Of a stretch of 64,000 nt of DNA, positions 1,748 through 64,000 are shown in pieces. This DNA comes from Actinernus sp. WN-2022 (Eukaryota; Cnidaria; Anthozoa; Actiniaria; Actinernidae). The notes beneath the pieces were generated by a model that was not told where the DNA came from, did not search any database, and saw only the letters and a list, made by a program, of their open reading frames with translations. The translations under genes and the position numbers were made by a program. Location: contig JAOWCC010001501.1 in the NCBI GenBank assembly GCA_030867875.1, positions 23,681,036 through 23,745,035 of the forward strand. Reading direction: 5' to 3'. Position 1 is the first letter of the stretch. The number at the start of each line of letters is the position of its first letter.

Positions 1748-1784
<37 letters not shown>

Positions 1785-1890
1785 AAATTATATTTATTAT
1801 ATTGTGTTTTCACGAATCAGAGTATTATTCCCGGAGCCTCATTTCAAAACTTTTGTGTGTGACAATGAAACATGTATCAAAAGTGGGCTA
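1094..1890. repeat. Degenerate short repeats and long poly-G tract
   Basis: Diverged copies of a unit containing CTTGAACAGGGTATG occur at about 1446, 1482, 1648 and 1680. They are followed by an uninterrupted G tract of about 34 bases at 1750-1783. The ORFs across the G tract are low-complexity artefacts. Confidence 0.55.
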
Positions 1891-1891
1891 T

Positions 1892-51249: not shown

Positions 51250-51440
51250 GCATGAGGTATGCCCATATATGGTCATAACAAATTAATTATTCATGAGCCT
51301 ATGCCCATATATGGGCATACCGGAAGTGAAACAACGAAACGGTTTCGCAAAACCGGAAGCGAAACAACGAAACCGGATGCGAAACAACGAAACGGTTTCG
51401 CAAAACCGGAAGTGGAACAACGAAACGGGCGAAAAACCGG
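51250..51440. repeat. Left terminal region of the viral element: palindrome and tandem repeats
   Basis: A perfect 20-bp palindrome TATGCCCATATATGGGCATA occupies 51300-51319; a shortened copy is at 51258-51272. Next come direct repeats: CGAAACGGTTTCGCAAAACC at 51335-51354 and again at 51388-51407, interspersed with ACCGGAAG(T/C)GAAACAACG. Such arrays are typical of transposon or virus ends and of origin or packaging regions. Whether this is the terminal inverted repeat cannot be tested because the other end is outside the window. Confidence 0.6.
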
Positions 51441-51535
51441 ATCTACGTCAGAATATTATCCTGGGCTGAAAAACGGAACTACGTCAGATGATAAAGTGGC
51501 CTATAAATATAGAAGCGCCAAGGCTTGTTTTACCA
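51441..51535 (+). promoter_or_regulatory. Viral promoter P1: two TACGTCA sites and TATA box
   Basis: TACGTCA (CRE-like half site) at 51444-51450 and 51480-51486, then TATA box CTATAAATA from 51501. Expected transcription start about 51530, 25 bases before the ATG at 51556. The 35-base block from GGAACTACGTCAG to the TATA box is repeated identically at 53337-53371. Confidence 0.75.
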
Positions 51536-51555
51536 ATCCTTCTGAGAAAGAAAAA

Positions 51556-53274
51556 ATGGCTACCTCCATGGACGCTCCCCTATCCAGCGAAATGGTGGAG
51601 GTGTATCGGATCGACGAGTGTGGTTTGAAGAAAGTGGAGGCCCACCTGAGTAATTTTGGGGTGTTGGAGGGTTGTATAGAGCCTATGAGGTATTTGTGGA
51701 GAATATCACCCCGCGATGAAGAGTTCGAGGAGAAAGAGAAAGACAACCTAGCAGACATGACAAACAGGCAAGAGCGCGAATTCAGCTCCACCTCCTTGAA
51801 CGCGCAAGAGGCCTATGAGGATTACATGGTGCGTATGTCCCATTCTACAGAATGTGGGGTATGTACCTACAAGGATAAGCAAGGATACACGTACAGCAAC
51901 TGGATGGAACGTCTTCCCAGTGGTTTGCTCAGGTCTCTCAACAAGATGATGTATACCTATAAGGTGCAGTCCAGACAGCCTGAATTAATAAAATACACCC
52001 CTCGGTATGGCCATGAAACACAACATTTCACAAGCCCCGAGTGGGATCTGCATATAGCACACGTTCAGTTCGGTAAGAAATGCGAGATTATGAGGGATCT
52101 AGACCTGGAGAAGAAAGAAGAATACTCACGGAGACTTAGAAATGAAGAGATCATCCACTACTTGGAGACCCGTCTGGAGATTCATCCCGAGGGACAGGCA
52201 TGTTGTTGGGATCGTTCTATCGATCCCATCACCAAGATCCAACAATCACTGGGGGGTATGGATGCCGAAGAAGCGGCATGGTTGGGGAGGCATTTATCCT
52301 ATCCTTTGAGAGAAGTGGTGTTTCATGTACAACCGACGTTTAAACAACTTTTGAACTGTGTTGAATACCTGGGTACAGAAAAAGAAGAAGTCGAATCCTA
52401 CGATGTGTTTTTTGAGTGTTATACACATCTCGTGGATTTCCAGAAGAAGTACAGTATCAAAGACGACGAGGTCATTCTATGCCACCGCACTTGGATGATA
52501 GAAGAGGAAGAGTTAAAGAATGTCTACAGTCGCCCACTCCAGACCGGTAGAAGCACAGAGGAGCTACAGTTTCGCAATAAAAGGCATAAAAAATGGGTCG
52601 AGCAGGCTCGAGCTGTGGAGAAGAAGAGTCAACAACAATACGCCCAAAGATCCGTCGAAGTAAGACGTGTGCGTCTGAATTCCGTATCGTCCATGAAGAA
52701 GAAGAATGATAAAGAAGAAGAAGAACCCCAGAAGTCGCCGCAGCAGTCGCAGCAACCCATGGACACATGCTATAGACGGAGGCAGCGTGTGTATGCAGAA
52801 TGGAGCAAGAACCATTGGTTTCTAGGCTACGTTCAGTTGGTGGTCGGCAAGACGGTGATGGTGAAGTTTGACGATGGAGACACTAAAAGCTACACCTGTT
52901 CAAAAAATGAATTTCATCATCCCAAGGTTGAAGACATCTCCCAGTTGACGATGGCGAAGCCCTACGTGTACGATGGCAATAACTACCTGGGCGACAAGGT
53001 TGTGGCGCGTTGGGAAGATCGTCACTACTATCCTGGAAAGATAGAAGAGTACGACAACGAGGCGGTGACGGTCGAGTTTGACGACGGGTTTGAGGAAAGG
53101 TACAAACACCCTGTCCCTAAAGAGTGGTTTCTGAATTCTATAGGCGGCACCTCTCTCTTCTCGTCTTTTGAGGAGCTGGCGAATCAGGAAGAGGAGAAGG
53201 CGGCGGCGGAGGCGAACCAATTCCCACTGAAAAAAAAGATAAAGCTCGCTCCGGCGTTAGACACCCTTCAGTAG
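51556..53274 (+). CDS. Viral protein with C-terminal tandem Tudor-like domains (572 aa)
   Basis: The frame is open upstream to 51259, but those codons run through terminal repeats and promoter. The ATG at 51556 (AAAAAATGG) follows the TATA box by about 50 bases and is the likely start. Residues 1-390 are acidic and helical, with Cys pairs but no family I recognise. Residues about 390-405 are Gln/Ser/Glu-rich linker. Two Tudor-like barrels follow: one at about 409-452 (VYAEWSKNHWFLGYV, VMVKFDDGD) and one at about 479-520 (VVARWEDRHYYPGKIEEYDN, VTVEFDDGF). Aromatic residues lie where methyl-lysine/arginine cages form, as in 53BP1- or SGF29-type readers. A basic NLS-like end (LKKKIKL) suggests the nucleus. 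First gene of the plus-strand block; role in chromatin targeting is inference. Confidence 0.7.
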   Translation: MATSMDAPLSSEMVEVYRIDECGLKKVEAHLSNFGVLEGCIEPMRYLWRISPRDEEFEEKEKDNLADMTNRQEREFSSTSLNAQEAYEDYMVRMSHSTECGVCTYKDKQGYTYSNWMERLPSGLLRSLNKMMYTYKVQSRQPELIKYTPRYGHETQHFTSPEWDLHIAHVQFGKKCEIMRDLDLEKKEEYSRRLRNEEIIHYLETRLEIHPEGQACCWDRSIDPITKIQQSLGGMDAEEAAWLGRHLSYPLREVVFHVQPTFKQLLNCVEYLGTEKEEVESYDVFFECYTHLVDFQKKYSIKDDEVILCHRTWMIEEEELKNVYSRPLQTGRSTEELQFRNKRHKKWVEQARAVEKKSQQQYAQRSVEVRRVRLNSVSSMKKKNDKEEEEPQKSPQQSQQPMDTCYRRRQRVYAEWSKNHWFLGYVQLVVGKTVMVKFDDGDTKSYTCSKNEFHHPKVEDISQLTMAKPYVYDGNNYLGDKVVARWEDRHYYPGKIEEYDNEAVTVEFDDGFEERYKHPVPKEWFLNSIGGTSLFSSFEELANQEEEKAAAEANQFPLKKKIKLAPALDTLQ

Positions 53275-53289
53275 CGCTATGATCTTTTG

Positions 53290-53400
53290 ACACCGGAACT
53301 ACGTCAGAATCTTACCTCTGGCATGGGTGTAAAAAACGGAACTACGTCAGATGATAAAGTGGCCTATAAATAGAGTAGTGCACCAAGTCTTGTTTTATCA
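53290..53400 (+). promoter_or_regulatory. Viral promoter P2, duplicate of P1
   Basis: TACGTCA at 53300-53306 and 53343-53349 and TATA box CTATAAATAG from 53364. The segment ACGGAACTACGTCAGATGAT through the TATA box equals P1; upstream spacing and flanks differ. ATG of the next gene is 43 bases after the TATA box. Confidence 0.75.
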
Positions 53401-53406
53401 TTAATC

Positions 53407-53709
53407 ATGGACATGGACGATACATGGTTCAAAGAGAACAGGAGTCACCCTGGTTATATACCTTTAATGAAGTATATCAGATCCGGGGGTGATGAAAAGT
53501 CCCTAGTCTGCAGTACCTTTCGCTACATTGTAAAATGTATGAATGACACATTACTTCATGAGGAGTGGCCTCGTTTGCTAGTGGGCCTGACCGATTTTCA
53601 ATTGGATTTAAGCACTATGAGCGAAGTCAACAACTCAGTGCTTTTGGCAGCATTGTGTATCAAATGGGATGTGCTTAAAGATGAGGATGAGGAGGAGGAG
53701 GATGATTGA
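53407..53709 (+). CDS. Small acidic viral protein, unrecognised (100 aa)
   Basis: ATG at 53407 just after promoter P2. The protein starts MDMDDTWFKENRSHPG, is mixed helical, and ends in a run of Asp/Glu (DEDEEEEDD), like many nuclear acidic-tail proteins. No domain recognised. It shares a promoter type with the Tudor protein, so the two are probably expressed together. AATAAATAAA about 25 bases after the stop can serve as polyadenylation signal. Confidence 0.6.
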   Translation: MDMDDTWFKENRSHPGYIPLMKYIRSGGDEKSLVCSTFRYIVKCMNDTLLHEEWPRLLVGLTDFQLDLSTMSEVNNSVLLAALCIKWDVLKDEDEEEEDD

Positions 53710-53777
53710 TGGATCGAGTGAGATGTTGTAAATAAATAAAAGGCCACCCCAGTCGTCCGCTACCACTCAGTAGCGTC

Positions 53778-54122
53778 ATGTCCTTTCACCACTGCAGTTC
53801 GCCGTCGAGAGGTCGGACCTCCTCGGAAAGACTGACTCGTGTGTTTACCCCGAAAGGGGGTATAGAAAGAAGAAGAAATGTGCAAGAATTTTGCCGTTTA
53901 CGCGGCGAACTGTCTAGTATCGCCCTGAAACTTTTACTGGACAATGCCGAGAGGCATTCTATTAGTATGCAAGGCGACGTTGTAAATAAAGCCTTATTAA
54001 AGTGGATGCATCACGCCTGTGAGGCAGAACGAATCTTGTTGGCCCGAGAGAAAGACTGGCAAGAGTTTGAGCAAGACGTTAAAGCACAAGGTATAGAAGT
54101 GGTCGATGGAGAGGCGAACTAG
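53778..54122 (+). CDS. Viral helical protein, unrecognised (114 aa)
   Basis: ATG at 53778. An AAATAAAAGGCC stretch about 40 bases upstream can act both as TATA-like box here and as polyadenylation signal of the gene before. N-terminal 30 residues are basic and Ser/Thr-rich; residues 35-100 look like continuous helices (SSIALKLLLDNAERHS, ALLKWMHHACEAERILLA). No family recognised. Its last codons overlap the next gene's start by 17 bases in another frame. Confidence 0.55.
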   Translation: MSFHHCSSPSRGRTSSERLTRVFTPKGGIERRRNVQEFCRLRGELSSIALKLLLDNAERHSISMQGDVVNKALLKWMHHACEAERILLAREKDWQEFEQDVKAQGIEVVDGEAN

Positions 54123-54309
54123 AAAGCTCCTTGGTCTAGTGGTAGGCTTGATCCTGTTTTTGATCCATCAGTTTTTTAACCGGAAGTTAGAGGGAGGAGG
54201 AGGAGGAACTACGGCGGAAGTACGTCAGATGCTGGATACGGTTTTGGATTTGACATATTTAGAACCCTCCTATTCTTGCAATCATTCGACCTCGACTGCG
54301 GAGCTGTGA
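54106..54309 (+). CDS. Small viral membrane protein (67 aa)
   Basis: Starts at ATG 54106 inside the end of the preceding gene. Short basic N-terminus (MERRTRK), then one hydrophobic segment of about 17 residues (LLGLVVGLILFLIHQFF), then a Gly-rich linker and a short soluble tail. It looks like a signal-anchor or single-pass protein. No homologue recognised. A TACGTCAGATG site at 54221-54231 lies within it and may serve the next gene. Confidence 0.45.
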   Translation: MERRTRKLLGLVVGLILFLIHQFFNRKLEGGGGGTTAEVRQMLDTVLDLTYLEPSYSCNHSTSTAEL

Positions 54310-54352
54310 ACATCCTCCAGAGACAAAGATAAAGAAAGAAAGAGAGAGAGAG

Positions 54353-55390
54353 ATGGCAAGTCACGAGGAGGGAATGAAGTTGCGGCCTATTATGACCTTA
54401 AAACGGGTGAATGCCCCCGAACGTGCTGTGTTCGAGTACGATCACCCCATGCATCTTCTGGTGGGCAAAGCCAAACCCATGGTCTTATTGTTGCGCAAGA
54501 TGACCAGGGAATTGGACGAGATCTTAGAATACTTGGAGGCGGTGTCCAAACCCGAGGTGTCGGCCAAGGACCTAGACAGGCTGAGTCTGACCCAAAGAAA
54601 ACTGCCCAATTGGGTGGAGCGAGAGTTTCTGGAACCCGGTTTTACTCTCCATGGAAGTATGATGGATGAATACCAGATGAAAGTGTACGTGGGCGATGTG
54701 GACAGAATAGCCCGTGAGATGTTGAAGGTGGGCATGGGGAAGTTGTTGGACGCTCATCTTAGTCACGGGGTGTTCTCCGACGATGTGGAACCCGACACCG
54801 TAAGACCTAGGACGGTGACTAAGAAGGTGCGTAGACAGTTGGCCACCTCCACTCGGAAGTACGCCAAAGCAAAAAAATGTATTCCAGAGACTCCAGAAAA
54901 AAAGAACGAGGTTGTCAAGCAGGAAAAGAAGAAGAAGAAGAAGGAGACGAAGTATGTGGATCTAGTGCCCTACCCAACAACAACAACAACAATAACAGAC
55001 AGCGGCTACTACCCTCTTCCTCCTCCTCCTCCTTCTACCCCCGTTCCTGCCAGTGTTGCCCCTCTCGTGTTCACCCCCGAGAACATACCACCGCCCCCTC
55101 TAGCGCCTATAAAGAAGAAGAAGAATAAGAATAAGCCGAGAAAAAAGCTGCATCTCAACATCCCCCCACGTAGTCTTATGGAGGATATCATGTCTGAAGT
55201 ACCTCCCACGCCTATTGTCCAGGACAAGCCTTGGGACTTTGAAGTTCCGATTCTACCGCCAGAGCAAGTGTTGATCGACCAGCCCGAGCCAGGTTTTAGC
55301 AATTATATTACGGCCGGCATCAAGCAAAGGGAAGCGGATTTGCTACAACGCCTGATGAATGGCGAGACTCTTACTGCTGTAAATTTTTAA
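54353..55390 (+). CDS. Viral Lys/Pro-rich protein, unrecognised (345 aa)
   Basis: ATG at 54353 after a GA-rich leader. Residues 1-150 are folded-looking and helical (RKMTRELDEILEYLEAVSKP). Residues about 165-265 are low-complexity: Lys runs (KKKKKK), TTTTT, PPPPPP. The last 80 residues are again ordered-looking (IPPRSLMEDIMSEVPPTP, GIKQREADLLQRLMNGETLT). The layout suits a structural or scaffold protein whose linker binds nucleic acid, but that is inference. No family recognised. Last plus-strand gene before the convergent border. Confidence 0.6.
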   Translation: MASHEEGMKLRPIMTLKRVNAPERAVFEYDHPMHLLVGKAKPMVLLLRKMTRELDEILEYLEAVSKPEVSAKDLDRLSLTQRKLPNWVEREFLEPGFTLHGSMMDEYQMKVYVGDVDRIAREMLKVGMGKLLDAHLSHGVFSDDVEPDTVRPRTVTKKVRRQLATSTRKYAKAKKCIPETPEKKNEVVKQEKKKKKKETKYVDLVPYPTTTTTITDSGYYPLPPPPPSTPVPASVAPLVFTPENIPPPPLAPIKKKKNKNKPRKKLHLNIPPRSLMEDIMSEVPPTPIVQDKPWDFEVPILPPEQVLIDQPEPGFSNYITAGIKQREADLLQRLMNGETLTAVNF

Positions 55391-55473
55391 GAAAGCAAAA
55401 CGGAAAAAACATGTATGCTAAAGTGTCAGAAATAAAAAAAGACAGTAGACGATTCAGGTGTCCTGGTATTTAT
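55391..55473. terminator. Back-to-back polyadenylation signals between convergent viral blocks
   Basis: AATAAA at about 55432 serves the plus strand. TATTTATTTATT at about 55467-55478 contains AATAAA on the minus strand, partly within the last codons of the opposing gene. Only 83 bases separate the two stop codons. Confidence 0.65.
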
Positions 55474-56121
55474 TTATTTTTTAAATGATACACTCAACCA
55501 AGGATTAATAATACTACTGGGAATACGTCCTCTTCCTTTTGTTTTCGTTTTCTTTTTCTTTTTAATCTGTATCGTTGACGAGGGCGATGTCTGCGGTGGG
55601 TCGGGTCCTAGATACTTGGGCTTTTTGGGGCGTGTCATGATGTTGTAGTGGGTTTTCGTTTTAGGAACATGAGGTGTGGAAGGGGGCAGTGTAGGCGCTT
55701 CCACCGTCTTCTTCTTCTTTTTAGGGGGACCAGGGGTTCCTACGGGGGGCGACGGCAGAGGGGGAAGCGACGAATCTTCTTCTTGTTGTTGTTGTTGTGG
55801 GATGCCGGCGGTCGCAGTATTATTTTTCTGCCAGTCGCGTGAGTCGGCCATAAGTTTACGATAACGTTTGAGCATGTTTTCAAACATGTTGATCTTGATT
55901 TCAGGATTGATCTTGCTGTTTAAAATACGGTGGATGTTGTCGTTGGTGTCCACCAGATTGCTGGTGTAAGGCGTTTGTCGTTCTTCTTGTAGAATAGCAG
56001 CTACTTTGGCCATACGGCTGGCATTCGCTCCACTGCCTGTTTGGTCCAGAGGAGTCTCGACAGACTGTACATCCCCCATATTTTTTTCAGGAACTACGTA
56101 GGCACGCTCATTGTACTTCAT
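55474..56121 (-). CDS. Viral Lys/Pro-rich protein, unrecognised (215 aa)
   Basis: ATG at 56121 (MKYNERAYVVPEKNMG). An upstream GTG-extended frame exists, but a TATA-like box at 56156-56170 places the transcript start after it. Residues 1-110 are helical (NPEIKINMFENMLKRYRKLM); then a Gln run, Pro-rich stretches and four Lys clusters up to the C-terminus. The general layout (ordered N-terminus, Lys/Pro-rich tail) resembles the convergent gene opposite, without alignable sequence. No family recognised; a virion core or cement protein is a guess. Confidence 0.6.
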   Translation of the reverse strand: MKYNERAYVVPEKNMGDVQSVETPLDQTGSGANASRMAKVAAILQEERQTPYTSNLVDTNDNIHRILNSKINPEIKINMFENMLKRYRKLMADSRDWQKNNTATAGIPQQQQQEEDSSLPPLPSPPVGTPGPPKKKKKTVEAPTLPPSTPHVPKTKTHYNIMTRPKKPKYLGPDPPQTSPSSTIQIKKKKKTKTKGRGRIPSSIINPWLSVSFKK

Positions 56122-56155
56122 CTCTCGAGTACTGAAGAGAAAATCAAATCCCACG

Positions 56156-56170
56156 CCGTATTTATCTCTT
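56156..56170 (-). promoter_or_regulatory. TATA-like box for the 215-aa gene
   Basis: Minus strand GAGATAAATACGG, about 46 bases before the ATG at 56121. Confidence 0.5.
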
Positions 56171-56204
56171 TTTTTCTCGGGTGAAGAGGGAAAGGTCTCT
56201 TTTT

Positions 56205-56612
56205 TTATTTCTGTCTGGATTTATCGATTTTAGCCTTGATGGTTTTGAAAATGGGTTTTAAAATCATAGGAAGAATGGAAGAGGCCAGCATGCCTACAAC
56301 AGCTCCCACACCCCCGCCACGTTGTCGGAGGGCACGTTGACGACGTTGGGCCGATTGATTGGGATTCCCCAAGATGCGTAAGGCCTTGGTAATGTGAGGT
56401 TTGTTCTTGATGTCATCGAGGATGCTGCGATGGACCACAGGGGTGTTGCCTCCAAGAAAGTTGTGCACCACTTCACCACAGGCTGTAATTTGTTCGGGCG
56501 AGGCATGCAGGGCTAGCTTATGGCACTGATGCTTGTTTCCACGGGCCATGGCCTCTAGAAAGACCCGGTGCTTGTACAAACGTGTGGACCTATGCGTTTT
56601 TACCCGAGGCAT
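56205..56612 (-). CDS. Polinton-type small virion protein, core/pX-like (135 aa)
   Basis: The pattern matches a short protein found in most animal Polintons/adintoviruses: basic N-terminus, LYKHRVFLEAMARGN, a Cys/Glu/Asn core (ACGEVVHNFLGGNTPV), a charged helix, RQRGGG, then a hydrophobic C-terminus (VGMLASSILPMILKPIF). That family is a virion component of adenovirus core/pVI-like type; exact role unproven. The hydrophobic Gly-rich end could touch membranes. ATG at 56612 is only 4 bases after the stop of the upstream gene, so both may share a transcript. AATAAA overlaps its stop codon. Confidence 0.6.
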   Translation of the reverse strand: MPRVKTHRSTRLYKHRVFLEAMARGNKHQCHKLALHASPEQITACGEVVHNFLGGNTPVVHRSILDDIKNKPHITKALRILGNPNQSAQRRQRALRQRGGGVGAVVGMLASSILPMILKPIFKTIKAKIDKSRQK

Positions 56613-56616
56613 TTTT

Positions 56617-56841
56617 TCAAGGTATCTTTTTCGTCTTCTTCTTTCTTTCCAACTTGTTTAGATAGACGGGTCTTCCCGCGACGGTGATGAATGGCGGTGG
56701 GCTGCGTAGACTACCTCCCACATGGTGGGGGAACACGTCTTTTAAACCATCGTAGCGTGGAGGCCCATGTTTCGAAAATAAAGAGCTGCCTTTTGTTTGA
56801 CGACGGCTTTTCCTTCTTCTTCTTCTTCCTCCTCTCGCCAT
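56617..56841 (-). CDS. Small Arg/Lys-rich viral protein 1 (74 aa)
   Basis: It starts MARGGRRRRRKSRRQTKG, has a neutral Pro/His-rich middle and ends in KKKTKK. The strongly basic ends and size fit a DNA-condensing core protein of the protamine or adenovirus mu/VII type (inference from composition). Own TATA box 48 bases upstream of the ATG. First of four such genes in a row. Confidence 0.65.
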   Translation of the reverse strand: MARGGRRRRRKSRRQTKGSSLFSKHGPPRYDGLKDVFPHHVGGSLRSPPPFITVAGRPVYLNKLERKKKTKKIP

Positions 56842-56879
56842 GCGGTTGGGATATGTGTTTTTTTAGTGACCCTGCAGGT

Positions 56880-56891
56880 CTTTTTATAGTC
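56880..56891 (-). promoter_or_regulatory. TATA box for basic protein 1
   Basis: Minus strand ACTATAAAAAGACC, about 48 bases before ATG 56841 and 10 bases beyond the preceding stop codon. Confidence 0.7.
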
Positions 56892-56895
56892 TAGC

Positions 56896-57078
56896 CTAAA
56901 AAATATCCCCTAGAATAGGGATGCCTCGAAACGGCGACTTGTTTCCAAAAATAAGTCCACCTCCTTTTCGACTTCTTCTTTTTCTTCCTCTTTTCTTTCG
57001 ACCCCCTACAGTACGACGTCGTTTAAGAAGACTTTTTTTCTTTCTCGGACGACGGCCACCGGATTGACGACGGACCAT
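56896..57078 (-). CDS. Small Arg/Lys-rich viral protein 2 (60 aa)
   Basis: About half of its residues are Arg or Lys (KRRRTVGGRKKRGRKRRSRK), with a short hydrophobic C-terminus (RGIPILGDIF). It is the most protamine-like of the four and close to adenovirus mu in size. It probably packs the genome in the capsid; the C-terminal patch could bind another virion protein. Own TATA box. Confidence 0.65.
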   Translation of the reverse strand: MVRRQSGGRRPRKKKSLLKRRRTVGGRKKRGRKRRSRKGGGLIFGNKSPFRGIPILGDIF

Positions 57079-57120
57079 GATGGCGGGCGTGAATGTTGTG
57101 GACTAGAGGAGGGTGTGTGC

Positions 57121-57132
57121 GGGTTTTTATAA
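57121..57132 (-). promoter_or_regulatory. TATA box for basic protein 2, containing the upstream stop codon
   Basis: Minus strand TTATAAAAACCC, 52 bases before ATG 57078. TTA TAA are the last codon and stop of basic protein 3. Confidence 0.75.
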
Positions 57133-57324
57133 TTTTTTGAAGAGACGGTATAGGGCTTTATACTTGGCTATTTTTTTACGGCCTTTCTTAACCGTGGCAG
57201 GGTTCCGTAATCGCATCGAAAGTGTGTGTAGATTGCCGGCTAAGCTGAAACTACGGCCCCGCTGCCGTCGACGACTTCTTTTTCTTCTTCTTCTGCTGTT
57301 GGAACGTTGGCGAGGCCGAGCCAT
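57127..57324 (-). CDS. Small Arg/Lys-rich viral protein 3 (65 aa)
   Basis: Start taken at ATG 57324 (MARPRQRSNSRRRRKRSRRR); ten further codons upstream are open, but the TATA box at 57361-57372 puts the transcript start close to them. Arg-Ser repeats in the N-terminal half, basic helix in the C-terminal half ending in FKKL. Basic protein 4 ends IKKL, hinting at a shared origin of the tails. Confidence 0.65.
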   Translation of the reverse strand: MARPRQRSNSRRRRKRSRRRQRGRSFSLAGNLHTLSMRLRNPATVKKGRKKIAKYKALYRLFKKL

Positions 57325-57360
57325 GATGTTTCTGAAGATGAGGGTATGAACCACCCCTAC

Positions 57361-57372
57361 ATCATTTATAGT
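57361..57372 (-). promoter_or_regulatory. TATA box for basic protein 3, containing the upstream stop codon
   Basis: Minus strand ACTATAAATGAT, 46 bases before ATG 57324. CTA TAA are the last codon and stop of basic protein 4. Confidence 0.75.
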
Positions 57373-57587
57373 TTTTTAATCAGCTCGCGAACGAATTTAA
57401 GAGCATCTTTTGCATGCTTGGATTTGGCTAGAATAGGTCTGAGGGCAGACCCGGCACTGTCGGCAGCATAGCTGATCGCTTTATTCTTGATGAAGTCTTT
57501 AACCCCTCTTCCACGACGTCGACGTTTCCTTCTTCTTCTTTTTCCACCCACCACACTTTTACGTCGACCGCCTCGTGTGTTAGCCAT
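57366..57587 (-). CDS. Small Arg/Lys-rich viral protein 4 (73 aa)
   Basis: ATG at 57587. The N-terminal third is almost purely basic (GGKRRRRKRRRRGRG); the C-terminal two thirds form a normal amphipathic helix pair (DFIKNKAISYAADSAGSALR, AKDALKFVRELIKKL). The mix suggests DNA binding plus a protein contact. Own TATA box, which also holds the end of the 392-aa gene. No closer family recognised. Confidence 0.65.
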   Translation of the reverse strand: MANTRGGRRKSVVGGKRRRRKRRRRGRGVKDFIKNKAISYAADSAGSALRPILAKSKHAKDALKFVRELIKKL

Positions 57588-57620
57588 AGCGACACTGGGG
57601 AGTCTAGGCGGGAATGACGG

Positions 57621-57633
57621 TCTATTTATATCC
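57621..57633 (-). promoter_or_regulatory. TATA box for basic protein 4, coding for the end of the upstream protein
   Basis: Minus strand GGATATAAATAGA, about 43 bases before ATG 57587. TAT AAA TAG are the last two codons and stop of the 392-aa gene. Confidence 0.75.
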
Positions 57634-58800
57634 TAGTTGTCTTTCTAAATCCGCTTGTCTCTTCGCACTCTTTTTGACAGCATTTCCAAACCGTTTCAGT
57701 TTATTTTTCTTGTCCCTTATCTTACGTATAACGTCATCCACCCAAGTGTGCCCGCGCCCCCTACGGGCATTGCTGCCTGTGGTGACGGAGCCCTCGCTAC
57801 TGGTGCTCCTCCTCCTGGCTCTTCTTCTGCGGCGGCGGACAGAAGACCTGTTGCGAGGTCCAGGCATGGACAGGCTTTCCGATTGACGTTCCACGACCGG
57901 CTGCTGTCCTTTCCGCACCGTCGTCGTGGTGCGTGTGCTGGTAATGGTTTGATGATCTCCTTGCCCCAAGTCTCGACGTACGGACCCACTCGACATGCGA
58001 TGGGTGTTCTCTCCTTGAACATGAGTATAATCGTCATCGTTGCGGGCGGGATGTTGGTTCTCTACAATCGCCTCATTAATACGGTCTTCAATACGATGCA
58101 GTCGCGCTTGAAGACGCTGTCGTACAGAATCTTCCAGTCTTGGGTTGGTGTTGTGAATCATTCTATTGAGGTCATCCGATTGTTCTATCAGGGCGTTTAA
58201 GGACAGGGTGTTTGTAGCATCGCCCGAGTTATCCAAAGGCACCTGCTGATCGAGAAAACCGGTCACGAGCCGACGCACCTGTGAGTCTGTGTCGGCGGAC
58301 GGTGCGGGCAAGGTCTGTTGTTGTTGTTGTTGTTGTTGTTGTCTTGGAGGAGGCGGAGGTCGCGGGGAAGTCGCCGGCAAGGAAGCGTACGTGTCATTGA
58401 TCAGATCTGCCAAGGGCTGTGTCGGCGACCGAGCCGGCTGTGGCGTGCTGGTGGCTGTGGTGGCGGCGGGTAGTCTCGCATTCGCGACGAGCCGTTCAAA
58501 TTCCCTTTGGAGTTGGGCCGTATGCGGATCGGTATCTTGTGTGATTGGGGACAAGGTGTCTTCATAATTGGAGATGGTGATGGGAGAAGGGGTGGCGGCG
58601 GCAGCGGTGGTAATAGAGGGCGAGGTGGGGTTGGAGCGGATGATGGTTCGTAGAGTGTCCTGAACGTCACCCACCAGTTGGTTGGCGACAGACACCTGTC
58701 CGCTGAGCATAGCCTCTTGCGAGGACATCAGCCGCTCCACCGAATCGTTCAGCAGAGTCGGCACAATCTCTCCGGCATCCCATCCTGAAGGAGCGCTCAT
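57622..58800 (-). CDS. Large low-complexity viral structural candidate (392 aa)
   Basis: The ATG at 58800 overlaps the ATPase stop codon (ATGA). N-terminal 60 residues are helical (VERLMSSQEAMLSGQVSVAN). Then follow Thr/Ala/Pro-rich sequence, PPPPP, a nine-residue Gln run, a helical middle (SVRQRLQARLHRIEDRINEA), a Ser/Thr-rich part, an Arg block (SVRRRRRRARRRST) and a basic C-terminal helix (KNKLKRFGNAVKKSAKRQAD). No family recognised. Domain order suggests a virion protein linking capsid and DNA, as adenovirus core or IIIa proteins do, but this is inference. No TATA box seen just upstream, so it may be made from the ATPase transcript by reinitiation. Confidence 0.6.
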   Translation of the reverse strand: MSAPSGWDAGEIVPTLLNDSVERLMSSQEAMLSGQVSVANQLVGDVQDTLRTIIRSNPTSPSITTAAAATPSPITISNYEDTLSPITQDTDPHTAQLQREFERLVANARLPAATTATSTPQPARSPTQPLADLINDTYASLPATSPRPPPPPRQQQQQQQQQTLPAPSADTDSQVRRLVTGFLDQQVPLDNSGDATNTLSLNALIEQSDDLNRMIHNTNPRLEDSVRQRLQARLHRIEDRINEAIVENQHPARNDDDYTHVQGENTHRMSSGSVRRDLGQGDHQTITSTRTTTTVRKGQQPVVERQSESLSMPGPRNRSSVRRRRRRARRRSTSSEGSVTTGSNARRGRGHTWVDDVIRKIRDKKNKLKRFGNAVKKSAKRQADLERQLGYK

Positions 58801-59501
58801 TTATTTTTTCCCTTAGGCAGCCAAATAACCTGGTAGTCGAGGTCGGAAGGTAATATGTTCCCGCGAAGCCGGTAGGCATCGTCTGTATGTTGTGTAAAGT
58901 CAAACAACATGTACTTATACTCTGCACTCTGGGATCCCCCTTTCGTAGCGTCGTGAAAAGCTTCTTGCACGCGAGCTTGTTCTCGGGGAAACGCTTGTCG
59001 GATCAGATTGGTCAACTGCAACCGGTCACGAGGGTTATTGAACATGATGACATACTGCGTGTTGAGACTCATGGTCCGCGAATGTTTTCCTCGGGGAAAC
59101 ATGTTTTGCGTTAATAAAATAGTGGTAATGTTCCGATGATGGGTCCCGCCTGTAAACAATTTTTCTATCATACCGCTGCTTCCGCTTTCTTGCATGAGAT
59201 CGTCTAGGACGAGTAAGGTGCCCTCTCTGCGGCCGGTATCACCTCCCGTGTAATCGTAAATGTTTTCAGGAAGTCCCTCGACCATCGCCACACCTTGTTT
59301 TTTCAACCCCTCAAAACCAGGCTGCCATTCGCCATAACAGTAGACGACATGAGGTATGTATTTTTGAAACGCATCTTTACGCTGGCGTATCAGCTCTAGC
59401 GTGAGCGTCGTCTTACCGCTCATCGTTGGGCCCACGATCGTGATGTTCGAGGGGACGTGGAAGCGGGGATCAAAGCGGGGTGACTTTAGAGGTTCTCCCA
59501 T
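58797..59501 (-). CDS. Genome-packaging ATPase, Polinton/adintovirus type (234 aa)
   Basis: FtsK/HerA-superfamily packaging ATPase (A32-like), which drives DNA into preformed capsids. Walker A GPTMSGKTT at residues 24-32; Walker B TLLVLDDLMQE near residue 95; then the family block HRNITTILLTQNMFPRG with the sensor Gln-Asn, and SLNTQYVIMFNNPRD. An in-frame GTG four codons upstream is not used here; ATG 59501 (MGEPLKSPRF) fits the TATA-like box at 59531-59543. Length is usual for the family. It sits between the protease and the 392-aa gene. No broken motif. Confidence 0.88.
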   Translation of the reverse strand: MGEPLKSPRFDPRFHVPSNITIVGPTMSGKTTLTLELIRQRKDAFQKYIPHVVYCYGEWQPGFEGLKKQGVAMVEGLPENIYDYTGGDTGRREGTLLVLDDLMQESGSSGMIEKLFTGGTHHRNITTILLTQNMFPRGKHSRTMSLNTQYVIMFNNPRDRLQLTNLIRQAFPREQARVQEAFHDATKGGSQSAEYKYMLFDFTQHTDDAYRLRGNILPSDLDYQVIWLPKGKNK

Positions 59502-59530
59502 GACGACTGACACAGGATGGAAGTGTTCAC

Positions 59531-59543
59531 AGGCTTTTATTCG
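59531..59543 (-). promoter_or_regulatory. TATA-like box for the packaging ATPase
   Basis: Minus strand CGAATAAAAGCCT, about 38 bases before ATG 59501. The same AATAAA could be the polyadenylation signal of the protease gene. Confidence 0.5.
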
Positions 59544-59573
59544 TTTTTTTCGACCACCCTAAGACTAAGTTAT

Positions 59574-60188
59574 TTAACAAACACGACGTGCACAAGCACG
59601 GCTCTGACAAACTTGACTTAACAATTGTCTCCGTCGTTTTATTTTACGGATGCGTTCTTTAATCATGCGACGGCATACATAAGAACATACTTTAAAGTCA
59701 TTGTCTTTATACCCTCTTCCGGGGTAGGAATCGATAATGTCTTGCATCGGTCTTTTCTTCTGAATGCGTTGGTCCAGGTAGAAAAGACAATGGTGTCCAC
59801 ACACGGCCGAGGTGTTGGCTTGAAGTCTGCGGTCGTTGTAGAGAATGTCGCCATTGCCGAGGGTCTTCATGCATTGTACAAAACCGCTACCGTAATGTCC
59901 GGGTAATTCCCCAAAACTGTCGAAGAACTCCACGGGGTGGTGGGAATTCTTAAAAAACATGGCGATCCAATGCACCCCCGGACCTTCAGACGTGTCTGTG
60001 TTGCTAATCAGACCGGCAGGGTAGTGGCGTATTTGTTTTGGCATCGTGTCTATGGAGAAAACACCTAGAAATTGGCGTTGGAACAGGCGAGGCTGTGCTC
60101 GGCCGATAGTGTTCAGGTCGCTGTCCGACAATCCCTTAAACAGGTCGGCCCCCAATAGCTTGTTAACGAGGGTCGTGGTGGTGGTCAT
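59574..60188 (-). CDS. Adenain-like cysteine protease (204 aa)
   Basis: Maturation protease of the adenovirus/Polinton type (peptidase family C5). Active-site positions are all visible: His73 in GVHWIAMFF, Asp90 in VEFFDSFGELP (Glu in adenovirus), Gln123 and Cys130 in LQANTSAVCGHHC, with the Gln-to-Cys spacing of seven as in adenain. N-terminal part has the family's GVFSIDTMP and SNTDTSEGPG. The C-terminal 30 residues are Arg/Lys/Cys-rich (RIRKIKRRRQLL) and may bind DNA, which activates the adenovirus enzyme. It would cleave core and pVI-like precursors in the virion. It starts 28 bases after the capsid gene's stop, with a GT microsatellite between them. Confidence 0.9.
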   Translation of the reverse strand: MTTTTTLVNKLLGADLFKGLSDSDLNTIGRAQPRLFQRQFLGVFSIDTMPKQIRHYPAGLISNTDTSEGPGVHWIAMFFKNSHHPVEFFDSFGELPGHYGSGFVQCMKTLGNGDILYNDRRLQANTSAVCGHHCLFYLDQRIQKKRPMQDIIDSYPGRGYKDNDFKVCSYVCRRMIKERIRKIKRRRQLLSQVCQSRACARRVC

Positions 60189-60215
60189 GTTGTGTGTGTG
60201 TGTGTGGGGGGAAGC

Positions 60216-61604
60216 TCAGTAGTTGTGGCGGAGCGTCACTTGTTTTCTACCGTCAATGTCCACCACGTTTTTATACTCGGGAAGTAAGATCACTTTTATA
60301 TTCTCGGTCAGAGGGGATTTGAATTTTATGAGGCAGTCGATGATCCCGTTATTATTGCCGTACACGTACTTGTTGTACCCGCCACCATCACGGCTGAAGT
60401 CGACCTGGATGATGCAGAATCCCCTCTTGATGTCTTCGATCCTGATACCATTACTTGGACCGTACCACAGATTGCCCGTGGCGCGGTACATCATGGCGAG
60501 AATTTCGGACAGGTCAGGGTCTTTGAAGGTGATGCGGGGCAGGGGTTCTTCGCGGTTGTCTCTCATAAACTGTACGGATTGGATGTCGTGATGTTTGAAA
60601 TTGCAATAGTTTTTTTTGTAGTGACCGCTGTAGGCATCTTGAGCAACAAGTACCAAAGTCACTTTTTGTGGAGACCCTCCTAGAAACACATTGTTGAGCC
60701 TCAATTCATTCAACCCTACCATGCCGACACGGACCACGGGTTTGATGGTGGTCAGGGGGAAATGAATGGTTTCATGGTTCTGGTATTGTCTGGCTTCGAT
60801 TCTTGTGTGTAGTATTTCGCTCAGTTCGACTTCGCGGATCCAAATTTCAGCATTGGACCGTACGATTTTAGCCCCCTTTTCGGGCCCTGTAGTCTCGGCA
60901 TTCATCAGACAAAAGGCGTCGCTATTAAATCGTACGTGGATGCTGATGCCCACTCCGGGGGGCAGGAGACGGTTGGACCCCAGAATGTCCAGACAGGGTT
61001 GAAATTCCACATGCACGTTGGGGCCGTCGTTCGCAAACTTGGCACGTTTGACCAGAGTGGGACTGACGGAAGTATCGGTGATAGGATCCGTCTCATCCAT
61101 GGCGGATGGGGTATCGCCATACCACCCCTCCAAGGCCAGACCGCTCTTCTTCTGGGCTTTGGTGAAGTTCAATAGGTTTCTCAAATAGGCCTTGTACGCA
61201 TAGCAGTCTGTTATTTCCTCGACGCTGGTCCCATTCAACTGAAAGTCGATGGAGGCGATTTGGGCATGGGCAAAGTTATTGACCAAAGCTACTTTTTTAG
61301 CCGCCATAGGTTGCCCCGCAGAGTCCACCACTTTAAAGTCCATATGCATTTCCAGTAGAGTCAGATCGCGGAAATCGTTGGAGGGGTCGATGACGAAGGA
61401 CAGAGGAGTCCAGGAGTCGTTGTGAGGCGTGTAGGGTCTGAGCCGAGAATTCTTGTACGTCGTTTCCACAGGTTCTTCATTGAACAGCTCGGTGACTTGT
61501 GGAAGACTGACGTATTCGGTCTTTTTCTTCTCCACCACGGGAGGTGTGGTAGACACTTCGACATCGCTGTCGCCATCGTCATCGGCGCGTTTGCGTTTAG
61601 GCAT
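60216..61604 (-). CDS. Major capsid protein, double jelly-roll, Polinton type (462 aa)
   Basis: Hexon-like major capsid protein of the Polinton/adintovirus lineage (often annotated after C. elegans F54H12.2). Family landmarks: RPYTPHNDSWTPLSFVID near residue 55, DLTLLEMHMDFKV, KVALVNNFAHAQIASIDFQL with LNG, then YAYKAYLRNLLNF and GWYGDTPSAMDE; later VDFSRDGGGYNKYVYG near the C-terminus. Three copies of the double barrel form one capsomer. Start at ATG 61604 (MPKRKRADDDG, NLS-like); the GTG-led extension of ten codons is not needed. TATA box at 61681-61690. Length fits the family and no disruption is seen. Confidence 0.88.
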   Translation of the reverse strand: MPKRKRADDDGDSDVEVSTTPPVVEKKKTEYVSLPQVTELFNEEPVETTYKNSRLRPYTPHNDSWTPLSFVIDPSNDFRDLTLLEMHMDFKVVDSAGQPMAAKKVALVNNFAHAQIASIDFQLNGTSVEEITDCYAYKAYLRNLLNFTKAQKKSGLALEGWYGDTPSAMDETDPITDTSVSPTLVKRAKFANDGPNVHVEFQPCLDILGSNRLLPPGVGISIHVRFNSDAFCLMNAETTGPEKGAKIVRSNAEIWIREVELSEILHTRIEARQYQNHETIHFPLTTIKPVVRVGMVGLNELRLNNVFLGGSPQKVTLVLVAQDAYSGHYKKNYCNFKHHDIQSVQFMRDNREEPLPRITFKDPDLSEILAMMYRATGNLWYGPSNGIRIEDIKRGFCIIQVDFSRDGGGYNKYVYGNNNGIIDCLIKFKSPLTENIKVILLPEYKNVVDIDGRKQVTLRHNY

Positions 61605-61680
61605 GGTGGTCTCGAGTGTTTTTTTTCGACGCACCGTGGGTTGGGGTGGGTATGATGGGACTCCTCTAGAGGGTGGGGTG

Positions 61681-61690
61681 TATTTATAGG
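61681..61690 (-). promoter_or_regulatory. TATA box for the major capsid gene
   Basis: Minus strand CCTATAAATA, about 85 bases before ATG 61604, giving a leader of about 55 bases. It lies 10 bases beyond the stop of the pVI-like gene. Confidence 0.7.
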
Positions 61691-61699
61691 GTCTCTACT

Positions 61700-62158
61700 C
61701 TAATCCGAGTCGCTATCGAAAATGTCCTGTTGCTTGTGTATCTTCTTCTTCTTTTTTACCGCAAGGGTTCTTTTCTTTTTTTTTTCCTTACCCAAAGGTA
61801 AAGTACGCACCGTTCCATTTTTTTTCTTTTTTTTAAGGATCTTCTTCTTTTTGATTACATTTTTTTTCTTCTTCTTAAAAGACGGTCGGGTATAGGCGTC
61901 CACACTGTGGAGGGCTTTTCTCTTCAATTCTTCGGCCGCCGTCATGGTGCCATCGCGTACGGCTTCCTCTACATCTTTACCCTCAAGCATAGATTTTCCT
62001 ACCCCGGCGGCTTTTTCCAGCAAGGTTCCCGCCACCATAGGAATAACTTTTTTGGCATTCTGCGCCATACGACGGACCAACACAGATCCGAAACCGGAGC
62101 CGAACCGTCTTCCGGGAACCCCGCCTCTATAGATGGGAAAATTAGGTAGTGGTTTCAT
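61700..62158 (-). CDS. pVI-like minor virion protein, Lys-rich tail (152 aa)
   Basis: N-terminus MKPLPNFPIYRGGVPGRRFG, then a Gly/Val/Ala-rich amphipathic region (KVIPMVAGTLLEKAAGVGKS) and EAVRDGTMTAAEELKRKAL. This order occurs in a small protein encoded in most animal Polintons (G-x-G-x-G, R-x-x-x-P, G-A-x-x-x-G, then a charged helix), compared by others to adenovirus pVI, which breaks endosomes. The second half is almost only Lys runs and ends in acidic DIFDSDSD. It sits 16 bases after the penton candidate's stop and may share its transcript. Functional call is inference. Confidence 0.6.
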   Translation of the reverse strand: MKPLPNFPIYRGGVPGRRFGSGFGSVLVRRMAQNAKKVIPMVAGTLLEKAAGVGKSMLEGKDVEEAVRDGTMTAAEELKRKALHSVDAYTRPSFKKKKKNVIKKKKILKKKKKNGTVRTLPLGKEKKKKRTLAVKKKKKIHKQQDIFDSDSD

Positions 62159-62174
62159 CGTTTTTTTCTCGCCT

Positions 62175-64000
62175 TCACGTCAGACCGCGTTTTCTTCGTT
62201 TTCTCAAGTGCAGCTTGATGTTGACCACGCCGTCCTTCTTGAACTGAATGTACCTGCCCTTACCGTCTATTATATAGATGCTGAAGCCATTGAAGCTGTT
62301 CAGAGCCAATGGCACATAGCGAGGATGGATGAATTCGACGGCTCTTTGCTGTTCGTACGACTGTACGGCAGGAATGACATCCAGGATGGGGGCCAATACA
62401 TTGCCTATAGGCGAACTCTGGACTTGAGGGCAATAGATGAAGAGATCGTCGTACACAGACGTAAATGTAGCGTAGAAATGAAGCGTGTAGGGCTGTGAGC
62501 CGGTGATGGCCTGTTGGGTGCTCTTGCCATAGCCTACAGGACCGACCTGTATCATTCTGGTTTTGGCAATGGGAGGATTGTTGTATTGCTCCGATTCAAA
62601 AGGTTTGTTGGGCAAGACCCAAGCCGTCATCTTGGGACGTTTTCCCTCCGCAGGCAAGTCCACTTCAAACCATCGGTTGTCGCTCCAGGACCAATGGGGT
62701 TTCATCAGACCCAACCCGTGACGCAATTCGTCGGACAGGTACAGACAATACCGTCCCGCCTGATGGATAAGACACTGGTGGTGGGCGTTGTGACCGACCC
62801 GAACGTACCCCATGAGATTATTCGACGAGAGTTGGCTTCCGACGAAATGATAATCTCTATGTTGTGGGGCGGAGGGATCGTCGGCCACCCCTAAAGCGGC
62901 CCTCATCTGTTTGGACTGGGCATAGGTGCTTTGTTGAACGAACCCGCGGCGGGCGCCTGCATACGTGTACACCAGGGTGCTGTGGCGCACATCTCCTCCT
63001 ACCAACCAAAACTTCATTCGCGCGTACCAGTTCTTAGGGGGGTCCATCATAGAATTTTGGTCTGGATCCGCCCGAAAGACGTATTTGGTGACATCCGTAT
63101 TCGGAAATTGGGCTTTAAACGAGGTCCATTCCGCCTGCACGGCGGCGGCTTTGGTGGTATACATTAAAGGCGATTTGTCTTCCACCCCTTCTGAAAACCC
63201 GACCAGTTTTAATAGGCTGTGGCTATCGATCTTAATGCCCTCCACATAGTCCGAAGCGATGCTGTAGGTGCACTTGTACTGATTGCCGGACGAGGGATAG
63301 GCATTCTGCATACGAAAGTGGATCGCCACTTGGGAGTTAATCCAGTCCCCAATTTCCTCCATCATGTAACTGCCCGGAGTCATGTGGGCGACCACCCAAT
63401 GTCTGTCGACATCGAAGCGTTTATACGTGAGACGGTTGTTGCTCGTGGTAACATTGTAGCGGATGACAGTGTCGATCTGTGTTTGAATGTCGATCAACAG
63501 TTCTTCAGGATCGTGGTAGACTTCTTTGGTCAAGGTCAGACGGTGGTCGGTCACGTTTCTCTTGAGCTCCCATTCCGGAGTGCCCCATCCTGACGTGGGA
63601 CTGCTCATGGCATTCCAGGCATACCCGATACCCATAGCCACGTCGGTCTCCGTCGGCGCCCACTCTAGAATTCCAAAGGCTCTCAACAGTTGTTCTGCCT
63701 CAATTTTAAAAAGGATCGGAGGGAGACTGACGACTTGCGCGGCTACTTCCATGCTGCCTGCTTTCACATCGTATTCAATGGGAAAGTCGCTGGTGAATCG
63801 GGCCGGGACATTGTCTGGATGAGCCCTTAGACTGTCTGTGTTAGAAATCACAATCACACGGCCTGGCGACCCCATGCTTCCACGCCGTTGCAAATCCAAG
63901 GATAGCACCGTACGTCCTGCGGTAAATTTTAACAAGTCTCCTTTATGATCTTTCAAAGATATACGTATCTTGTTGAAGCCTCCAGTCGTCAAGCGGTGGT
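62175..64000 (-). CDS. Penton/minor capsid candidate, 5' end outside window
   Basis: More than 608 residues. The frame has no ATG near the window edge and continues off it, so the start is not visible; a TTG at 63992 is not a credible start. The N-terminal region has the Polinton pattern of an SN-D/S-x-S-x-x-x-x-P-D-N-x-x-x-x-F-T motif (VISNTDSLRAHPDNVPARFT) followed by SMEVAAQVVSLPP. This pattern marks the second capsid gene of animal Polintons, taken to form the pentons. C-terminal third is beta-rich (YSGH-free, FNGFSIYIIDGKGRYIQF) and ends in basic RKRRKRGLT. Fibre/receptor protein is the alternative. Neighbour of the pVI-like and capsid genes. Confidence 0.6.
   Translation of the reverse strand, partial: HRLTTGGFNKIRISLKDHKGDLLKFTAGRTVLSLDLQRRGSMGSPGRVIVISNTDSLRAHPDNVPARFTSDFPIEYDVKAGSMEVAAQVVSLPPILFKIEAEQLLRAFGILEWAPTETDVAMGIGYAWNAMSSPTSGWGTPEWELKRNVTDHRLTLTKEVYHDPEELLIDIQTQIDTVIRYNVTTSNNRLTYKRFDVDRHWVVAHMTPGSYMMEEIGDWINSQVAIHFRMQNAYPSSGNQYKCTYSIASDYVEGIKIDSHSLLKLVGFSEGVEDKSPLMYTTKAAAVQAEWTSFKAQFPNTDVTKYVFRADPDQNSMMDPPKNWYARMKFWLVGGDVRHSTLVYTYAGARRGFVQQSTYAQSKQMRAALGVADDPSAPQHRDYHFVGSQLSSNNLMGYVRVGHNAHHQCLIHQAGRYCLYLSDELRHGLGLMKPHWSWSDNRWFEVDLPAEGKRPKMTAWVLPNKPFESEQYNNPPIAKTRMIQVGPVGYGKSTQQAITGSQPYTLHFYATFTSVYDDLFIYCPQVQSSPIGNVLAPILDVIPAVQSYEQQRAVEFIHPRYVPLALNSFNGFSIYIIDGKGRYIQFKKDGVVNIKLHLRKRRKRGLT

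What the first reader, a model, noticed from the sequence alone, without database searches (positions are those of the whole stretch)
51250..64000. Intact Polinton/adintovirus-like virus in animal DNA with an unusual accessory gene set
Seen: five recognisable virion-type genes plus about ten small or unknown genes, all open, no stops or shifts. Known: capsid, adenain protease and A32-like ATPase are the Polinton core. Inference: a recent or still active integration, or a virus assembled with host flank. The unknown genes (Tudor protein, four protamine-like proteins, Lys/Pro-rich proteins) do not match the usual Polinton set I know.
Basis: partly seen in the sequence, partly recalled or inferred. 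Interest (0 to 1): 0.88.

Follow-up and report, generated by a model that had tools for sequence, protein, structure and literature searches.

The report
Multi-copy animal Maverick with Tudor gene
This is one of many recent copies of a 27-kilobase virus-like mobile element (a Maverick/Polinton) in an animal genome, probably a sea anemone or coral relative; it belongs to a known kind but carries unusual helper genes, including a partly fast-changing chromatin-reader-like protein and four separately switched DNA-packing proteins.

Summary
The element begins at window 51207 (not 51250) and ends 15.3 kb right of the window: 27,084 bp, (AGT)2 termini, ~259-bp inverted repeats, 6-bp target duplication. 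Four of five other copies tried could be read at both ends; each has its own perfect 6-bp duplication. "Intact" fails for the whole element: here PolB is interrupted by a LINE fragment and ~750 bp is missing.

It is a multicopy Maverick/Polinton (adintovirus-like): 27 ATPase matches over residues 2-238 at 94-100% identity, 25 stop-free, mean dN/dS 0.12. More divergent families share the genome.

Unusual features: a left-end gene whose Tudor region is conserved (omega 0.16) beside a fast-changing stretch (omega 1.9, not significantly above 1); four protamine-like genes, each with its own TATA box, an arrangement partly repeated in five divergent families; a ~930-aa penton-like protein with two similar modules; and an AT-rich block of small Cys-rich genes. 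The capsid assignment is inferred, not structurally tested; no expression data were available. New variant of a known kind.

The parts
51201..51206 (.). 6-bp target-site duplication GACAGA (second copy at L010:4291-4296, outside the window)
   Evidence: four other copies read at both ends each have their own perfect 6-bp duplication
51207..51465 (+). Left terminal inverted repeat: starts AGTAGT, contains palindromic TATGCCCATATATGG motifs and GAAAC repeats
   Evidence: Right copy L010:4043-4290 at 89.6% over 260 nt, 1 mismatch in about the first 150 nt; 40 places scored of 122 candidates genome-wide
51469..51518 (+). Promoter-like 50-nt repeat (CTACGTCAG + TATAAATA) before the Tudor gene
   Evidence: Second copy at 53332, 94%; TACGTCA x2 and TATAAATA kept in 11 of 11 copies within the first 360 nt
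51556..53274 (+). Tudor protein, 572 aa: N-terminal domain of unknown fold, fast-changing 273-390, Tudor region about 430-515
   Evidence: Pfam Tudor_5 2.2e-5, Tudor_2 4.5e-5, Tudor_3 6.6e-5, all below curated cut-off for this start; Tudor_3 passes (6.6e-6) with the longer frame; PHF20L1 Tudor 4.6e-4; selection contrast; AlphaFold of the region unusable (pLDDT 46)
53332..53381 (+). Second copy of the promoter-like repeat (TATA at 53365)
53407..53709 (+). Small acidic-tailed protein, 100 aa, unknown
   Evidence: ORF; TATA 42 nt upstream
53778..54122 (+). 114-aa protein, unknown
   Evidence: Relatives in other families: 52% in L036, 34% in L034
54353..55390 (+). Lys/Pro-rich 345-aa protein
   Evidence: N-terminal part (8-143) 62% identical in L036
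55474..56121 (-). Lys/Pro-rich late-strand protein, about 215 aa from the first ATG
   Evidence: Relatives in 5 divergent families (L030, L031, L032, L034 and L040)
56205..56612 (-). 135-aa basic protein with hydrophobic C-terminus
   Evidence: Relatives in L030, L032, L034, L040
56617..56841 (-). Protamine-like protein 1 (29% K+R), TATA at 56888
   Evidence: relatives in 6 divergent families (L030, L031, L032, L034, L035, L040)
56896..57078 (-). Protamine-like protein 2 (39% K+R), TATA at 57131
   Evidence: short weak relatives in L030, L034, L040
57127..57324 (-). Protamine-like protein 3 (36% K+R for the longer frame to 57354), TATA at 57370
   Evidence: no relative found
57366..57587 (-). 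Protamine-like protein 4 (35% K+R), TATA at 57630
   Evidence: 58% relative in L030
57622..58800 (-). 392-aa protein, unknown (possible minor virion protein)
   Evidence: Middle-to-C-terminal segment found in 4 of 7 divergent pieces at 31-54% and in L040; dN/dS 0.31 in eight copies
58797..59501 (-). A32/FtsK-like packaging ATPase
   Evidence: dN/dS 0.12 over 27 copies
59574..60188 (-). Adenain-type cysteine protease
   Evidence: PF00770 8.6e-6; ASFV S273R E 0.0029
60216..61604 (-). [quoted passage not shown] TATA at 61688
   Evidence: Homologues in the same place in 7 of 7 divergent families; fold not shown
61700..62158 (-). 152-aa Lys-rich protein between penton-like gene and capsid gene
   Evidence: 30-33% relatives in L031, L032
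62175..64000 (-). Penton-like protein, second module and part of the first; the gene continues to about L009:961 (about 930 aa in all)
   Evidence: Read from one genomic stretch, L011; modules A and B hhalign probability 90% over 318 columns; fold not shown

Best explanation
The region is the left half of an integrated Maverick/Polinton (adintovirus-like double-stranded DNA virus/transposon) about 27 kb long. It belongs to a young multicopy family in an animal genome, probably an anthozoan (inferred). Shown: termini, target duplications, gene content, copy number, purifying selection and the broken PolB of this copy. Inferred mechanism: the integrase inserts linear DNA with 6-bp staggered joining, and a protein-primed PolB copies it. 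A promoter at the inner edge of the terminal repeat drives the first early gene, the Tudor protein. That protein uses its conserved Tudor region to bind methylated host histone or protein marks on the viral DNA, and its fast-changing part to engage or evade a host factor. Late genes run leftward from the integrase. Four protamine-like proteins, each with its own TATA promoter, condense the genome for packaging by the ATPase into a capsid matured by adenain.
For: Integrase with rve (7.9e-12) and chromodomain (2.2e-6), PolB PF03175 (9.2e-32). (AGT)2 ends with a 6-bp TSD, the pattern reported for Mavericks (PMC8097293, passages). TSDs in 5 of 5 copies read at both ends: GACAGA, TCCGAT, AAAGTT, ACTCAG, GATGTA (a sixth, L026, gave no match to its right end and could not be judged). 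27 ATPase matches covering residues 2-238 at 94-100%, window included, 25 stop-free. 40 terminal repeats scored, with nine convergent pairs 24-42 kb apart by my reading of the coordinates. The eight best-matching copies are 97.5-98.8% identical in DNA. ATPase mean dS 0.074, dN 0.009, ratio 0.12 over all 27 copies. Order INT-penton-MCP-PRO-ATPase in 7 of 7 divergent families. TATAWAW 43-53 nt before 4 of 4 basic genes, 0 of 20,000 random placements, and before 8 of 10 basic ORFs in five divergent families. Tudor region omega 0.16 against 1.93 for residues 273-390, Fisher p 0.003.
Against: This copy is not complete. Capsid and penton folds not shown. No transcripts, particles or reads were available. 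Omega 1.93 is not significantly above 1 (p 0.097), so the fast region may be merely relaxed; over the whole Tudor protein omega is 0.74. Two of 10 basic ORFs in the related families and both basic ORFs of the most distant family L033 lack the TATA box, and L032 shows no basic ORF by the same rule. Tudor hits are near or below curated cut-offs and the predicted model is poor. ETS-like CCGGAAGT sites are not conserved (0-2 per copy, absent in 4 of 11). Of 12 further left pieces, 6 keep the Tudor frame open and 2 have one stop; the frame is broken in 3 and only partly covered in 1.
Confidence: 0.85

Rival explanations
1. A non-viral self-synthesising DNA transposon: virion genes are carried passively and the copies moved by intracellular transposition only.
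For: Copies lie in the host assembly with TSDs; no particle evidence was available.
Against: ATPase (dN/dS 0.12 over 27 copies) and protease (0.23 over the eight best-matching copies) are under purifying selection between copies, the capsid-gene block is kept in 7 of 7 divergent families, and the basic-protein genes keep promoter-like TATA boxes. Genes that serve no purpose would decay.
Confidence: 0.12
2. The Tudor gene is not an immune or chromatin interface: its N-terminal part is simply under weak constraint and the Tudor domain is a DNA- or protein-binding module of the virion or replication complex.
For: Omega for residues 273-390 is not significantly above 1 (p 0.097); relatives of the N-terminal part in other families show no Tudor match in the pieces read.
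Against: Strong contrast within one protein (Fisher p 0.003) and an early-gene-like position behind the terminal repeat.
Confidence: 0.45
3. The contig is a virus particle genome or contaminant misassembled onto host sequence.
Against: Perfect TSDs in 5 of 5 copies read at both ends, identical left terminus in 11 of 11 covered copies in different flanks, copies on many large contigs, and a LINE fragment inside this copy.
Confidence: 0.01

Closest known systems
Mavericks/Polintons of animals (PMC8097293 and PMC4028283, passages read)
   Same: 6-bp TSD, (AGT)2//(ACT)2 ends, rve integrase, PolB, adenain protease, ATPase, capsid-type genes; [quoted passage not shown]
   Different: Tudor protein, TATA-driven protamine-like cassette, two-module penton-like protein, AT-rich Cys-rich gene block at the right end (differences judged against the passages read and recall, not a gene-by-gene survey)
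Adintoviruses (definition read in PMC11071296 passages), including a Stylophora coral adintovirus named in PMC11071308 (figure legend)
   Same: rve integrase with C-terminal chromodomain, PolB, adenain, packaging ATPase, animal host
   Different: A BLAST-recognisable link to a reference adintovirus hexon could not be tested; OTU-like domain of PolB not detected by Pfam
ATPase-bearing sequences of the sea anemone Actinostola sp. and the coral Montipora capricornis (names as given)
   Same: ATPase 42-52% and 37% identical; one Actinostola record reads protease-like and ATPase sequence in one predicted protein (P0002)
   Different: Their other genes were not seen
Adenoviruses (gene order recalled, not from a call)
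   Same: penton, small Lys-rich protein, capsid gene, protease run in the same order; basic core proteins
   Different: rve integrase, chromodomain, Tudor protein

Membership tests
Maverick/Polinton | Terminal inverted repeats with (AG)3 or (AGT)2 ends | tested here: met
   AGTAGT...ACTACT at both ends (motif from PMC8097293, where it is given for vertebrate Mavericks)
Maverick/Polinton | 6-bp target-site duplication | tested here: met
   5 of 5 copies read at both ends
Maverick/Polinton | rve (retroviral-type) integrase | tested here: met
   PF00665 7.9e-12
Maverick/Polinton | Protein-primed family B DNA polymerase | tested here: met
   PF03175 9.2e-32 and 2.9e-6 in the two pieces; the gene is interrupted in this copy. 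Protein priming itself not testable
Maverick/Polinton | A32/FtsK-like ATPase and adenain-type protease | tested here: met
Maverick/Polinton | Double jelly-roll major and single jelly-roll minor capsid proteins | tested here: inconclusive
   Position and homologues in 7 of 7 families; no profile or PDB hit; model unusable
Adintoviridae | Integrase with C-terminal chromodomain | tested here: met
   Chromo PF00385 2.2e-6
Adintoviridae | PolB with N-terminal OTU-like domain | tested here: inconclusive
   Long N-terminal part present; Pfam finds no OTU, and the published assignment is structural (PMC11071308 passages)
Adintoviridae | Hexon recognisable by BLASTp against reference adintoviruses | not testable with these tools
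   Reference proteins not held; a protein search found no capsid relatives

The most novel reading that the evidence does not exclude
A Maverick lineage has fused a methyl-reader Tudor module to a fast-changing domain and expresses it first, from a promoter at the edge of its own terminal repeat, to control or escape host chromatin silencing of the integrated copies; it then swaps histones for a set of four separately promoted protamine-like proteins before packaging. This would be a histone-to-protamine switch run by an animal DNA virus.
Probability: 0.25. Interest if true: 0.8.

Novelty: new variant of a known kind. Interest (0 to 1): 0.5.

Why it matters
Particles of Mavericks/Polintons are described as not observed, or the extracellular form as not yet detected (beginnings of the abstracts of PMC8097293 and PMC7805220, as listed). 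A family with many recent insertions, conserved late-gene TATA boxes and selection on its packaging genes in one chromosome-scale animal genome is a practical place to look for particles, expression and silencing. The Tudor gene offers a concrete hypothesis about how integrated DNA viruses interact with host chromatin, and the within-protein contrast in selection gives a testable interface.

Tried and rejected
Protein search of the capsid and penton-like proteins found no relatives among 7,294 and 6,989 candidates. PHROGs gave nothing useful. The ATPase profile against PDB matched only general P-loop proteins. Single-sequence AlphaFold models of the capsid candidate (pLDDT 32) and of the Tudor region (pLDDT 46) were unusable, so no fold search was run. 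Considered and dropped: the 51259 start of the Tudor ORF (inside the terminal repeat); an ETS-site enhancer reading, because CCGGAAGT is not conserved among copies; an insertion origin for the AT-rich right block, because it is present in the window copy and in 4 of 4 other copies whose right end was read (a fifth stretch, L026, had no match and was dropped). Pfam hits of the right-end genes were all below cut-off and are not used.
Full report
What is there. The window is G000:C540:23681036-23745035 of a 1.39-Gb, 1,772-contig genome. Up to about 51.2 kb it looks like ordinary animal DNA: BTB-domain fragments, a rhodopsin-type receptor fragment and a reverse transcriptase, at 35-43% G+C. From 52 kb the G+C content is 46-52% and closely packed open frames begin.

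Boundaries. The window stretch 51207-51465 matches L010:4043-4290 (right of the window) in inverted orientation at 89.6% over 260 nt. The first ~150 nt differ at one position; most differences lie in the repeat part. The ends read AGTAGT/ACTACT and are flanked by the same six bases, GACAGA. I fetched left pieces of twelve further copies, chosen from the best ATPase matches. Eleven of eleven whose left end was covered begin at window position 51206 or 51207 (the twelfth, L016, was not covered at its left end). Right pieces of five of these copies were fetched. Four matched, and each of these has its own perfect 6-bp duplication; the fifth, L026, had no match. The element is therefore 23732242-23759325, 27,084 bp. 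A search with the terminal repeat scored 40 places over at least 205 of 259 nt, out of 122 candidates. By my reading of the coordinates nine convergent pairs lie 24-42 kb apart, five of them 26.8-27.1 kb.

Gene content. Plus strand from the left end: Tudor protein (51556-53274), 100-, 114- and 345-aa proteins. Minus strand: penton-like, 152 aa, presumed capsid, adenain, ATPase, 392 aa, four protamine-like proteins, 135 aa, ~215 aa. To the right: the rest of the penton-like gene, integrase with chromodomain, PolB, then a plus-strand block that is AT-rich (38-43% G+C over most of its length) and four minus-strand genes near the right repeat. In that block some of the 297-, 98-, 95- and 94-aa proteins match each other weakly (297 with 94 and 98 with 95 at E 5e-4 to 2e-3 in a set of six; the 177- and 179-aa proteins do not). 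The block's genes are found in the window copy and in 4 of 4 others. A few right-end genes there carry a stop or a shift (a 210-aa gene in L025, two genes in L024, the 297-aa gene in L027).

State of this copy. PolB is in two pieces separated by a LINE 3' fragment. The ATPase-to-PolB distance is 0.88-0.90 kb shorter in the four other copies (coordinates), so among these five the fragment appears private to this copy. About 750 bp present in 4 of 4 others, carrying most of a 179-aa gene, is missing here.

Copies and age. ATPase search: 27 matches covering residues 2-238 at 94-100% identity, window included, 25 without stops; five of the 27 lie on contigs of 0.2-1.9 Mb and may be alternative haplotypes. 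The eight best matches, compared over 3.7 kb, are 97.5-98.8% identical. Over all 27 copies ATPase dS is 0.074 and dN 0.009, ratio 0.12. In the eight best matches the ratios are ATPase 0.05, protease 0.23, 392-aa protein 0.31; these eight were picked by ATPase similarity, so 0.05 is biased low. Ratios well below 1 mean that many differences arose while the genes were still working. More distant families share the genome at about 71-74, 55-60 and 47-49% ATPase identity, the last with 73 of the listed rows and more not listed. In seven pieces from such families the order integrase, penton-like, capsid, protease, ATPase is the same in 7 of 7 (in L030 only part of the first penton module matched; genes with stops occur in L029, L030, L034 and L035). 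In a midpoint-rooted FastTree tree the window family falls with six of these seven, one unnamed sequence and Actinostola sea-anemone sequences (support 0.984 for that group; the six own families plus window alone only 0.355). With that is why I infer an anthozoan host; no call names the host.

The Tudor gene. Pfam finds Tudor models at 2e-5 to 3e-4 from the 51556 start, and the closest solved chain is PHF20L1 (E 4.6e-4). Two similar motifs in the sequence suggest a tandem pair (my reading; the model is too poor to test it). Among nine frames (two with one stop) mean dS is 0.071 and dN 0.050, ratio 0.71; the ATPase of the same nine copies gives 0.056 and 0.004, ratio 0.07. With the seven stop-free frames only, residues 273-390 show 60 non-synonymous and 8 synonymous segregating changes (omega 1.93, p 0.097 against neutrality), residues 1-272 84 and 38 (0.61, p 0.015), and the Tudor region 3 and 5 (0.16, p 0.014); first and last differ (Fisher p 0.003). 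The segment limits were chosen after seeing the sliding-window result, so these p-values are descriptive. Relatives of the N-terminal part occur in two of five left-side pieces of divergent families (L037 2.5e-7, L040 3e-13), where tblastn finds no Tudor part. The simplest reading is an old early protein that gained, or alone kept, a chromatin-reader module.

The promoter logic. A 50-nt repeat with CTACGTCAG and TATAAATA precedes both the Tudor and the 100-aa gene. The two TACGTCA motifs and the TATA box of the first promoter are kept in 11 of 11 copies, while ETS-like sites are not (absent in 4 of 11) and GAAAC repeats vary from 4 to 12. On the late strand each of the four protamine-like genes has TATAWAW 43-53 nt before its ATG; none of 20,000 random placements of the same number of sites gave 4 of 4. 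The capsid and protease genes have one at 84-87 nt, and five of the eleven late genes tested have none. In five divergent families (L030, L031, L034, L035, L040) 8 of 10 basic ORFs downstream of the ATPase have one at 38-47 nt. In the most distant family 0 of 2 have one, and in L032 no basic ORF met the rule (one basic ORF of L030 upstream, at the start of the integrase, was left out of the count).

The penton-like protein. It reads as one frame across the window border (832 aa within L011, and about 96 more in the window). A direct comparison of the two parts is weak (34% over 47 aa, E 0.003); by hhalign they align with probability 90% over 318 columns (three sequences per side, one of which included integrase residues, so moderate evidence). 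Duplicate pentons are known in some adintoviruses (PMC11071296, passages).

Literature. 'Polinton' and 'Tudor domain' occur together in four papers by listing, none of which by title concerns a Polinton-borne Tudor gene (papers not read). In PMC11244446 the word Tudor refers to a cellular KDM4 protein (passages). Searches for coral, sea anemone and basic or protamine-like proteins with Polinton or adintovirus terms (listings only, apart from the passages named here) did not show this arrangement. The adintovirus founding paper is not held. So 'not found in print' is limited to those searches.

Verdict. A genuine, recently active Maverick/Polinton family: a known kind with an unusual and testable accessory set.

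Noticed in passing
window 41746-42782: Tandem array of a 207-bp unit, 4.9 copies, 86% matches, a possible host satellite.
   Followed up: no
window 7657-11166 and 39659-44149: Two similarly built BTB genes split into two pieces each, probably a duplicated host gene family.
   Followed up: partly
window 29579-30687: Reverse transcriptase remnants in the host flank (RVT_1 3.2e-18 for 29915-30298).
   Followed up: partly
L033 and rows: A second, far more abundant Polinton family (ATPase 47-49% identical, frames of about 320 aa, 73 listed places), whose capsid protein is only 22-23% identical to the window's.
   Followed up: partly
L031, oriented 211-3300: One open frame of 1,030 aa holds most of the integrase and both penton-like modules; a fusion or a lost stop.
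   Followed up: no
L010:112-1623 and L009:9169-9999: AT-rich block with a row of small Cys-rich proteins, some weakly similar to each other, present in the window copy and 4 of 4 other copies read; possibly a captured and duplicated gene family.
   Followed up: partly
window 51319-51426 and other copies: GAAAC-containing repeats in the terminal repeat vary from 4 to 12 between copies, and the two ends of this copy differ mainly there.
   Followed up: partly
L037:142-1365, L036:267-2003: Long open frames that look like reverse transcriptases of other retroelements (recalled resemblance, not tested) near or inside the left arms of divergent copies.
   Followed up: no
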